DNA of 64,000 nucleotides, from assembly GCF_004799665.1 (NCBI RefSeq), contig NZ_CP031310.1:1170887-1234886 (forward strand), written 5' to 3'. Source of the DNA: Halapricum salinum (GTDB lineage Archaea > Halobacteriota > Halobacteria > Halobacteriales > Haloarculaceae). The notes under the pieces are model-generated. The model made no database searches. It was not told the origin of the DNA and saw only the letters and a list, made by a program, of their open reading frames with translations. Positions 36,916-39,434 of the stretch are shown here, piece after piece (position 1 is the stretch's first letter; every line of letters begins with the position of its first letter). The position numbers and the translations under genes are program-made.

Positions 36916-37704
36916 GTGGAGCAGATCCTCGGGGTCGACTTCAGCGGTGCACGCGACGCTGGCCAGAAAATATGGTTGACCGTCTGCATCGAGCGCGACG
37001 GCGCGCTGCACGTGAAATCGTCCGTCCCGGCAGCGGCGCAGTTCGACGCCGACTCCCGGGCGGCGTGCCTCCGCGGCGTTCGTGCGGCGATCGAGCGGGC
37101 CGACGTCGTCGGGTTAGACGTCCCGTTCGGATTGCCAGCGGCGGTCCACGATCGTGAGTCGTGGACCGACGTCGTGTCGCTGATCGCCGGGATCGACGAT
37201 CCCGAGACGTTCCGGTCGAGGTGCGTCGCCCGTGCGAGCGAGGTGACTGGCGGCGACCAGCAGTACCTCCGGCGGGAGACCGACGCGGACCGCGGGGCGC
37301 TCTCACCCTATCACTGGATTCGCGCCGCCCAGACCTACTACGGGATTCGTGAAGTGCTCCAGCCGCTGGTCGGCGAGGACGCCGTCGCGATCAAACCCCT
37401 TCATGACGGTCCAGCGACGCCGGTCTGTGAGACCCACCCCGCGGCGACACTGCGGGACATCGGACTGCCGACTCGCGGGTACAAAGACGACACCGACCGC
37501 TCGCGAGATCGCCGCAAGACCATCGTCGAAGGCCTGCAGATGACGCCGCTGTCGATGCACGGAATCGAGGAGTACCTGCTCGACGACGTCGGCGGCGACG
37601 CTATCGACAGTCTGCTGACGGCGCTCGCGGCCTGGCGGGCCAGCCGCAACGAGTTCAGTCCCGAGGGCGCGTTCGACCCCGTCGAAGGCCACATCTACAG
37701 ATAA
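36916..37704 (+). CDS. DUF429 family protein
   Basis: 262 residues from a GTG. RNase-H-like start ILGVDFSGARDAG, then VVGLDVPFGLP, and the DUF429 signature SPYHWIRAAQT with VCETHPAATLRD and DSLLTALAAWRA. Members share an RNase H fold with catalytic acidic residues, function unknown. Its stop lies 12 bases before the upstream 75-nt RNA-like element. Confidence 0.88.
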   Translation: MEQILGVDFSGARDAGQKIWLTVCIERDGALHVKSSVPAAAQFDADSRAACLRGVRAAIERADVVGLDVPFGLPAAVHDRESWTDVVSLIAGIDDPETFRSRCVARASEVTGGDQQYLRRETDADRGALSPYHWIRAAQTYYGIREVLQPLVGEDAVAIKPLHDGPATPVCETHPAATLRDIGLPTRGYKDDTDRSRDRRKTIVEGLQMTPLSMHGIEEYLLDDVGGDAIDSLLTALAAWRASRNEFSPEGAFDPVEGHIYR

Positions 37705-37716
37705 ACAAGGCGAGTG

Positions 37717-37791
37717 CCTCGGGGTTGTTCGGAAATCGTAGATTTCCGTGATGACGAGACGCGTCGCGTCTCGAACTATTTGACCCCGAGG
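37717..37791 (+). ncRNA. 75-nt three-stem RNA element, upstream copy (TnpB-associated)
   Basis: Closed by CCTCGGGG (37717-37724) with CCCCGAGG (37784-37791). Inside, GGAAATC-GTA-GATTTCC and CGAGACGCG-T-CGCGTCTCG form two perfect hairpins. Unpaired joints GTGATGA and AACTATTTGA match the element at 39309 almost exactly, while stems differ by paired changes. It lies upstream of the AbrB-like gene and tnpB. It could be the left-end structure, or a leftover right end of an earlier insertion. Confidence 0.7.
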
Positions 37792-37891
37792 GTGAAGCCG
37801 ACAGTGGCCGACCAGCCGCCGGGTTGTCTCTCCCGGCCCACAGGCCCACGGTATCGAAACACTTACTCCGAGTGAATCAGAACAGATATGT

Positions 37892-38026
37892 ATGGGTCAG
37901 ACTGAGATGGAATGTTACCCGACTGTCCGTGACCGAGGACAGGTCACGATTCCCGAAGATGTGCGCGAACCGCTTGGTATCGAACCGGGCGACCGTATCA
38001 AACTCACTGTCGAACGGCTGGACTAA
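37892..38026 (+). CDS. AbrB/SpoVT-like small DNA-binding protein
   Basis: 44 residues (MGQTEMECYPTVRDRGQ...). RGQVTIPEDVREPLGIEPGD is the swapped-hairpin AbrB signature. Only five bases separate its stop from tnpB. Short AbrB proteins often precede tnpB in haloarchaeal elements; it may repress the element's promoter. It is short but its motif is complete. Confidence 0.75.
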   Translation: MGQTEMECYPTVRDRGQVTIPEDVREPLGIEPGDRIKLTVERLD

Positions 38027-38031
38027 CACAG

Positions 38032-39375
38032 ATGGACATAACGCTTCGCTGTCGCGCGTATCCCGACGAGGAAACCGCCAGCGAAGCGTGGCGACACATC
38101 GAAATCCACCGGCAGATACGGAACCACGCCATCCGCGACTACTACTCACACGACTACGGAAACCGGCCAACCGCCTACGACCAGCACCGCAAACTCACCG
38201 ACTGGAAACAGCGGTGGCCGCTCTTTTCGGACGTCTCGGCACACGCCGCCCAGCAGACCGTTTCAGAGATACACAAGAACGTCGAGACGCAGAAGGGTCG
38301 GCGGGAAAACGGCCACAAGGCAGGCCGGTTGAAGTGGCAGGGAAGCGGCGAACGTCGGTCAGTCGCGTATCAGTCCGAAGGCTTCAACGTGAATCACACC
38401 ACGGGCCAAGACGGGTACGCCACTGTTCGACTCTCAAAAATCGGTCACATCCCGATTCGAGCGCACCGAGAGCTTCCCGCGACCGAGCAAATCAAGCGCG
38501 TCGTGTTGAAGAAAGAACGAACCGGCGATTGGTTCGTCTCTCTGGTCACGGAACAGGCCGACGACGACCTTCCCGAGAAGCCCAGTCCAGATACGCTCGA
38601 CCCTGCCGACTGCGTGGGCGTGGACCTCGGGATTCTCTCGTACATCCACACCAGCGACGATACGGCGGTGGATATGCTCGACCTGTCCGACGAGTACGAC
38701 CGCTACGGGCGCGAACAGCGGAAACTCGACCGGAAAGAACACGGGTCGAACAACTGGGAGAAACAACGGCAGAGAGTCGCCACGGCGAAGCGCCAAATCA
38801 AGCGGAAAGTGCTGGACTACCAGCACAAACTCACGACGTGGCTGGTTCAAGAGTACGACTTGGTAGCTGTCGAAGATTTGGACGTAAAGCCGATGCTGGA
38901 AACCAGCCAGAACGCCAAGAACAAGCAGGACGCGGCATGGTCGCGGTTTCTGGACCTCTTGGAGTATAAGGGCGACCTGTATGGTACTCACGTCGTTCGA
39001 GTCGAACCAGCAGGAACAACCAAAGAGTGTTCGGAGTGCGGTGTGGAAACGTCAAAACCACTCTGGATTCGAGAACATTCCTGTCCGGCGTGCGGTCACA
39101 CCGAGGACAGGGACCTGAACGCGGCGAAGAACATCCTTTCTCGCGGTCGTAAACAGATAGGGGCGGGACGCTCCGAATCAACGTCCCCAGAAACCGAAGA
39201 TTTCTGGTGTGAGAACGAATCGCAGAGCGATTCGTTAACGCCTGTGCAGACTGCGCTCCCTACGGGAACCATCTCGGTTCCTGCAAAGCGCGTCGTGGAA
39301 GCAGGAAGCCCCGAGGTCGTTCGGAAGACAGAGTCTTCCGTGATGACGAGAGACGAAGCCTCTCGAACCACTTGA
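38032..39375 (+). CDS. tnpB: TnpB RNA-guided nuclease of IS200/IS605 family
   Basis: 447 residues. The RuvC-like nuclease is intact: D198 in VGVDLG, E281 in AVEDLDV, and the third acidic motif DRDLNAAKN at 359-367, with a zinc ribbon between (C333, C336, C351, C354). The N-terminal wedge/REC part begins MDITLRCRAYPDEETASEAW. TnpB proteins cut DNA guided by an omega RNA made from the element's right end. The final 22 codons overlap the 75-nt structured element. No inactivating change is seen. Confidence 0.93.
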   Translation: MDITLRCRAYPDEETASEAWRHIEIHRQIRNHAIRDYYSHDYGNRPTAYDQHRKLTDWKQRWPLFSDVSAHAAQQTVSEIHKNVETQKGRRENGHKAGRLKWQGSGERRSVAYQSEGFNVNHTTGQDGYATVRLSKIGHIPIRAHRELPATEQIKRVVLKKERTGDWFVSLVTEQADDDLPEKPSPDTLDPADCVGVDLGILSYIHTSDDTAVDMLDLSDEYDRYGREQRKLDRKEHGSNNWEKQRQRVATAKRQIKRKVLDYQHKLTTWLVQEYDLVAVEDLDVKPMLETSQNAKNKQDAAWSRFLDLLEYKGDLYGTHVVRVEPAGTTKECSECGVETSKPLWIREHSCPACGHTEDRDLNAAKNILSRGRKQIGAGRSESTSPETEDFWCENESQSDSLTPVQTALPTGTISVPAKRVVEAGSPEVVRKTESSVMTRDEASRTT

Positions 39376-39383
39376 CCTCGGGG
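39309..39383 (+). ncRNA. 75-nt three-stem RNA element, downstream copy (probable omega RNA scaffold)
   Basis: Closed by CCCCGAGG (39309-39316) with CCTCGGGG (39376-39383). Inside, GGAAGAC-AGA-GTCTTCC and CGAGAG-ACGAAGC-CTCTCG. It overlaps the last codons and stop of tnpB, where omega RNA scaffolds lie in IS605 elements; the guide would be the bases after 39383. The closing stem has its two arms swapped relative to the copy at 37717, preserving pairing. Confidence 0.75.
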
Positions 39384-39434
39384 TGGGTTCACGTCTGAGA
39401 AACACACAAATACCGCGGGGCGCTCGTGGGGTGT

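What the first reader, a model, noticed from the sequence alone, without database searches (positions are those of the whole stretch)
37717..39383. Two covarying 75-nt three-stem RNAs flank a TnpB gene
The element overlapping the tnpB stop codon (39309-39383) is where an omega RNA scaffold should be. A second copy of identical length lies upstream at 37717-37791. Unpaired joints (GTGATGA, AAC.A.TTGA) are nearly identical, while all three stems differ by compensatory changes; the closing stem even has its arms swapped. So structure is under selection in both copies. The upstream one may be a stand-alone guide RNA with a different guide, a left-end structure, or a leftover from an earlier insertion.
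Basis: partly seen in the sequence, partly recalled or inferred. Interest (0 to 1): 0.75.

Follow-up and report, generated by a model that had tools for sequence, protein, structure and literature searches.

The report
Mobile 54-bp double-hairpin in haloarchaeal transposons
The two matching three-stem structures around this gene are the two end-hairpins of one transposon, each with its own copy of a tiny 54-base jumping DNA element made of two hairpins; the element occurs in most salt-loving archaea and is not a second guide RNA.

Summary
Two 75-nt three-stem structures lie at 37717-37791 and 39309-39383, and the covariation between them is real.

Comparison with relatives splits each structure into two parts: (i) a terminal palindrome of a TnpB-only IS605-type transposon (CCTCGGGG-yTTGA-CCCCGAGG on the left, CCCCGAGG-CTTGA-CCTCGGGG on the right), and (ii) a 54-bp two-hairpin insert at the 5' side of the loop. 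TnpB relatives 93-95% identical in the core lack the insert at both ends. The empty target site fixes the transposon at 37699-39392, so the upstream copy is inside the left end of the same element.

A covariance model finds the 54-bp unit in 260 of 292 haloarchaeal genomes, up to about 50 copies, and almost nowhere else in the phylum. It sits between G and C, makes no target duplication, and can break genes (L017). On the TnpB tree its presence at the right end changes 7 times in 37 tips.

The stems covary, but DNA-type C(GNA)G triloops and their inversions point to hairpin DNA dynamics rather than RNA selection alone. Closest known: SMR-A elements of Haloquadratum (also insert into IS605 palindromes), REPINs, mitochondrial double-hairpin elements. 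How it moves remains unproven.

The parts
37699..39392 (+). TnpB-only IS605/IS1341-type transposon (1694 bp), inserted in the 3' end of a DUF429 gene after TCTAC
   Evidence: Joined flanks CATCTAC|GTCTGA match the gene end of homologues ..IYV* (TACATCTACGTCTGA in L095, L098; same pattern in L107); relatives share CTACAG.. on the left and ..GTTCAC on the right and then diverge
37725..37778 (+). 54-bp double-hairpin element, left copy
   Evidence: 77.0 bits with model R1; absent from the left end of L011, L012, L014, L015
37892..38026 (+). 44-aa MazE/AbrB-like DNA-binding ORF, part of the host transposon
   Evidence: PF04014, 35.6 bits, cut-off 24.7
38032..39375 (+). tnpB (447 aa), RNA-guided endonuclease; its last 18 sense codons come from the 54-bp insert, the same TGA is kept
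   Evidence: NF040570 255 bits; aligns with solved TnpB 8bf8/8exa; reading frame
39184..39240 (+). second, unrelated double-hairpin insert (57 bp, in frame, flanked by AACG) in the tnpB C-terminal region
   Evidence: absent from L011, L012, L014; related inserts in L052, L060, L062
39317..39370 (+). 54-bp double-hairpin element, right copy
   Evidence: 76.9 bits with model R1; empty right ends in 30 relatives
39393..39412 (+). expected start of the guide (flanking DNA after the right end)
   Evidence: position inferred from the transposon boundary and established TnpB/omega RNA biology

Best explanation
Each three-stem structure is the near-terminal palindrome (left end or right end) of one TnpB-only IS605-type transposon, into whose loop a 54-bp non-autonomous double-hairpin DNA element has inserted. 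The element is TCGTT - 8-bp stem with 3-nt loop - TGATGA - 8-bp stem with 3-nt loop - AACCA; its symmetrical variants are an inverted dimer of a 27-nt unit. It inserts between G and C without target duplication, is present in most haloarchaeal genomes, and hitch-hikes with host transposons. Shown: the transposon boundaries, presence or absence at homologous sites, scattered distribution on the TnpB tree, class-wide dispersal, a frame-breaking insertion, and spread with host elements. Inferred (about 40% likely): it moves as single-stranded DNA whose two hairpins are recognised by an HUH-type nuclease acting in trans, as in IS200/IS605 and REPIN systems. At the right end it would add two hairpins to the terminal hairpin of the omega RNA without destroying the closing stem (prediction only).
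For: Empty terminal palindromes in the closest TnpB relatives. Tally in 81 TnpB loci not chosen for the element: right end 30 empty and 7 filled; left end 24 scored empty and 3 filled (L024 counted as filled, L013 is a 47-bp shortened copy; many loci could not be scored). 7 changes for 7 filled tips on the TnpB tree, at least 3 forced by starred branches. Insert lengths at palindrome+CTTG[AC] sites peak at 0, 54 and 109 bp; control loops show no such peaks. L017: a 58-bp copy breaks tnpB at GCGAAG^CGTGGCG, with 39 near-matches to the empty joint among the loci held. 260 of 292 Halobacteria genomes positive at E<=1e-3; G043 about 50 copies. G|C at 99 of 119 non-redundant sites, background 7.8%. 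Ten copies of a short TnpB-less host element in G043, all with the element in the left end and all with different left flanks. C-G loop-closing pairs in 75 of 76 copies; triloops GNA or TNC in 79-82%; reverse-complement loop pairs enriched, also in the asymmetric subfamily.
Against: No mobilising enzyme identified: copy number tracks TnpB load (partial rho 0.27) but not Y1 TnpA once TnpB is accounted for (partial rho 0.04), and the window's own genome has no Y1 TnpA. No transposition was observed; strain-level polymorphism was not examined. Outside IS605 ends the target flanks are not more palindromic than random G|C sites. The loop-inversion test does not exclude added selection on RNA.
Confidence: 0.83

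Rival explanations
1. The three-stem fold is the functional omega RNA scaffold, kept by selection on RNA structure, and the upstream copy is a second guide RNA using the same TnpB.
For: Right copy lies at the omega RNA position; stems covary (24 double-changed cells vs 6.7 shuffled).
Against: TnpB relatives 93-95% identical in the core lack the two inner stems at both ends; the same 54 bp occurs in tnpB reading frames and in genomes with 0-2 TnpB genes and no TnpA; G-T vs A-C mismatches are 17 vs 8 with 22 others, no significant strand preference.
Confidence: 0.06
2. The hairpins are not transposed but arise or change in place by template switching at palindromes, which would also give concerted changes in both arms.
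For: Loop inversions and concerted arm changes; many insertions sit in palindromes at IS ends.
Against: Template switching does not explain the same conserved ends, joint and 54-bp length at unrelated sites across the class, or the G|C junction. It may still explain how stems diversify after insertion.
Confidence: 0.07
3. The element is a host weapon against IS605-type transposons, inserted to inactivate them (proposed for SMR-A by Dyall-Smith et al. 2011, PMC3119063).
For: Strong preference for IS605 palindromes; breaks tnpB in L017.
Against: Host elements with a filled left end have multiplied (10 copies in G043); at the right end it keeps the tnpB frame and stop; many copies occur in genomes almost free of TnpB.
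Confidence: 0.1
4. The element reached these palindromes once, in an ancestor of the transposon family, and has mostly been lost since.
For: Counts of changes on a tree cannot tell gain from loss.
Against: It is also at many non-homologous sites, in reading frames and in distant genomes; losses would have to be exact to the base each time.
Confidence: 0.08

Closest known systems
SMR-A small mobile repeats of Haloquadratum walsbyi (HqIRS42, 43, 55; Dyall-Smith 2011, PMC3119063)
   Same: Short, inverted ends, no target duplication, inserted in near-terminal palindromes of IS605-type transposons and PATEs, many copies, mobilisation unknown.
   Different: SMR-A are about 110 bp; here 54 bp. 109-bp versions exist here as the 54-bp element with another 55-bp double hairpin nested in it (L146, L221, L223), which may be what an SMR-A is. 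Here the family is class-wide, also outside IS605 elements.
REP doublets / REPINs, CGTC-tagged REPs of bacteria (PMC3733652, PMC3116915)
   Same: Inverted dimer of tagged 8-bp hairpins with short tails, high copy, some dimers inserted in palindromes.
   Different: Loops 3 nt not 4-5, other stem and tail sequences, archaeal; only IS200-type TnpA is reported from Archaea (PMC6006769), and copy number does not follow TnpA here.
Double-hairpin elements of Allomyces mitochondrial DNA (Paquin 2000, as cited in PMC2800124)
   Same: Two hairpins, inserted in genes and spacers, no target duplication, mobility inferred from relatives.
   Different: Different genomes and sequences; no link to IS605 ends or guide RNAs. 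Primary paper not read here.
omega RNA / sotRNA of haloarchaeal IS200/IS605 elements (PMC12558985)
   Same: Right copy lies inside the region expected to encode it, in the right-end hairpin.
   Different: The 54 nt are an optional insertion, absent from most relatives.

Membership tests
omega RNA scaffold (both copies) | lies at the 3' end of tnpB, running to the transposon right end, followed by the guide | tested here: met
   right copy only: 39309-39383, transposon ends 39392
omega RNA scaffold (both copies) | fold conserved among close TnpB relatives | tested here: not met
   outer stem conserved, inner stems absent from most relatives
omega RNA scaffold (both copies) | transcribed and bound by TnpB | not testable with these tools
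   no RNA data held
SMR-A | inserted within near-terminal palindromes of IS605-type elements | tested here: met
SMR-A | no target duplication, inverted terminal repeats | tested here: met
   TCGTTCG / CGAACCA ends; near-exact empty joints found for the two window sites and for the L016, L017, L082 sites
SMR-A | about 110 bp | tested here: not met
   54 bp; 109 bp only as nested compound
SMR-A | sequence similarity to HqIRS42, 43 or 55 | not testable with these tools
   sequences are in supplements that could not be opened
REP/REPIN | dimer of tagged hairpins, multicopy | tested here: met
   symmetrical variants such as L041
REP/REPIN | GTAG or CGTC tag, 4-5 nt loop (CGTC class) | tested here: not met
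   TCGT[TAC] end, 3-nt loops
REP/REPIN | mobilised by a Y1 tyrosine transposase | tested here: inconclusive
   no residual correlation with PF01797 after TnpB
MITE | terminal inverted repeats shared with an autonomous transposon, target duplication usual | tested here: not met
   no duplication; no autonomous parent found

The most novel reading that the evidence does not exclude
A class-wide family of minimal (54-bp) single-strand DNA transposons in haloarchaea, made only of two extra-stable C(GNA)G mini-hairpins, that inserts exactly between G and C, including into IS605 end palindromes, and thereby repeatedly remodels the guide RNA and C-terminus of TnpB nucleases; moved by an enzyme not yet recognised.
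Probability: 0.4. Interest if true: 0.75.

Novelty: new variant of a known kind. Interest (0 to 1): 0.55.

Why it matters
It removes a false lead (a second TnpB guide RNA) and replaces it with a concrete mobile family found in about nine of ten sampled haloarchaeal genomes that the library searched here does not describe. It makes the open question of how SMR-A elements move testable: exact ends, exact target (G^C), exact length and many empty/filled pairs are given. It also warns that stem covariation between copies need not mean RNA function, and that 54-nt optional hairpins in haloarchaeal omega RNA models should be treated as inserts.

Tried and rejected
(1) Rfam search of 35-42 kb: no relevant match. 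(2) 'The element targets palindromes everywhere': rejected, non-IS605 sites are no more palindromic than random G|C sites (p 0.15). (3) 'Y1 TnpA in the same genome drives copy number': not supported once TnpB load is included. (4) 'RNA-strand selection from G-U excess': 17 vs 8, not significant. (5) Two exact-pattern scans of viral contigs: none. (6) 'Upstream copy is debris of an older insertion': rejected by the empty site. (7) Apparent loop inversion could come from mis-oriented symmetrical elements; repeated on 44 asymmetric copies, still present but weaker. (8) Outside Halobacteria, 7 of about 312 genomes of the phylum gave weaker matches (best 7e-9), not followed up. (9) A Natronomonas plasmid record carries no annotation at a copy.

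Full report
Observation. The two 75-nt three-stem structures are present at the stated coordinates and fold far better than shuffled sequence. The alignment shows identical joints, compensatory stem differences and swapped closing arms.

What they are made of. I fetched 80 TnpB relatives from haloarchaeal genomes and read their ends. The relatives most like the window (L011, L012, L014, L015; TnpB core 93-95% identical over the first 375 residues) have at the upstream position only CCTCGGGG-CTTGA-CCCCGAGG (one arm base differs in L014) and at the downstream position only CCCCGAGG-CTTGA-CCTCGGGG. The swapped arms are therefore a native property of the transposon's two near-terminal palindromes. 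The window differs by a 54-bp insert at the 5' side of the loop at each end: 37725-37778 and 39317-39370.

The transposon. The DUF429 gene upstream ends ..GHIYR*. Homologues in other genomes end ..IYV* with DNA TACATCTACGTCTGA (L095, L098; same pattern in L107). Joining CATCTAC (ends 37698) to GTCTGA (starts 39393) restores that end. The transposon is thus 37699-39392, follows TCTAC, and holds both structures. The upstream copy is its left end. TnpB matches the guided TnpB family and aligns to solved TnpB structures. Its catalytic residues were not assayed; the conserved blocks VDLGI, VEDL and EDRDLNAAKNI are present by inspection.

The 54-bp element. Twelve gap-free copies (A3) gave 98.4% paired stem cells and 24 double-changed cells against 6.7 in shuffles. 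A covariance model R1 found it in 260 of 292 Halobacteria genomes at E<=1e-3. Outside that class, 7 of about 312 genomes of the phylum had weak matches.

Why I call it mobile. (1) Occupancy at homologous sites varies: right end 30 empty against 7 filled, left end 24 scored empty against 3 filled; many loci could not be scored (L024 was added by eye, and L017's left end, misread by the script, is empty). On the TnpB tree the 7 filled tips need 7 changes, as many as random labels, with at least 3 forced by well-supported branches. (2) Insert length at palindrome sites has peaks at 0, 54 and 109 bp; the loci include many brought in by the model, so the height of the 54 peak is partly by selection. 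(3) L017 has a 58-bp copy that breaks tnpB; L016, L043 and L082 have it reversed in the tnpB C-terminal region; empty joints of the L016, L017 and L082 sites occur among the loci held. (4) Non-redundant sites are G|C at 99 of 119, against a 7.8% background. (5) In G043 ten copies of a short TnpB-less IS605-type element all carry it in the left end with different left flanks, so a filled host element can still spread. (6) In genomes nearly free of TnpB and TnpA (G058, G075, G110, G122) slightly longer versions (55-66 bp) sit at other sites. At the right end of this window the insert keeps the tnpB frame and the same stop codon.

DNA or RNA. In 76 distinct copies the pair closing each loop is C-G in 75. 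Loops are GNA in 45 and 39 copies and TNC, its reverse complement, in 15 and 23 (12.5% expected for the two together). C(GNA)G is an unusually stable hairpin in DNA (my own knowledge; papers listed were not read for this). Reverse-complement loop pairs are over-represented, also among 44 copies of unambiguous orientation. G-T mismatches do not significantly exceed A-C. This fits hairpins that act, and are copied or flipped, as DNA. It does not exclude RNA effects.

Mechanism. Lack of target duplication, two hairpins with conserved feet and free stems, and the IS605 association make single-strand DNA transposition by an HUH-type enzyme in trans my best guess, about 40%. The one test I could run did not support the obvious candidate: correlation with Y1 TnpA vanishes when TnpB load is included, and the window's genome has no Y1 TnpA.

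What is known. Dyall-Smith et al. 2011 (PMC3119063) described SMR-A elements in Haloquadratum: about 110 bp, inverted ends, no duplication, inserted into the near-terminal palindromes of PATEs and IS605-type transposons. The element here has the same target habit. The 109-bp compounds, one in this genome (L146), suggest some SMR-A may be nested double hairpins; I could not compare sequences. Nothing else in the library searched describes the 54-bp unit, but most subscription papers and ISfinder were not searchable. REPINs and mitochondrial double-hairpin elements are close in design.

Verdict. A real and tidy observation with a different explanation: transposon ends carrying a widespread small mobile double-hairpin element. 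New variant of a known kind.

Noticed in passing
window 39184-39240: A second, unrelated double-hairpin insert (TCCCCAGAAACC..GATTTCTGG TGTGAGA ACGAATCGC..GCGATTCGT TAACG), 57 bp, in frame, flanked by AACG, in tnpB; related ones with different stems in L052, L060, L062.
   Followed up: partly
L020:4236-4281, L021:4210-4250, L054:4095-4139, L081:4062-4107, L089:6354-6399: At least three further double-hairpin families (40-46 bp cores) in or near haloarchaeal TnpB genes, with conserved joints and varying stems.
   Followed up: no
L146 (own genome 2811295-2811403), L221, L223: 109-bp compounds: the 54-bp element with a 55-bp double hairpin nested in its joint.
   Followed up: partly
window 37892-38026 and the same place in L022, L023, L026, L031: The small ORF just upstream of tnpB is MazE/AbrB-like here but apparently other small proteins in relatives; the module seems exchangeable.
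   Followed up: no
window 36916-37704: The insertion changes the last residue of the DUF429 protein (IYV* to IYR*) but leaves the gene otherwise intact.
   Followed up: yes
L062-L086, just upstream of tnpB, minus strand: A more distant TnpB group has a single 22-30-nt hairpin in the loop of a palindrome near its left end (TACTC-hairpin-CTC-CTTGAGG), also with varying stem.
   Followed up: no
G075:C1:615303-615413 and 104445-104560: Head-to-tail adjacent copies of the double-hairpin element.
   Followed up: no
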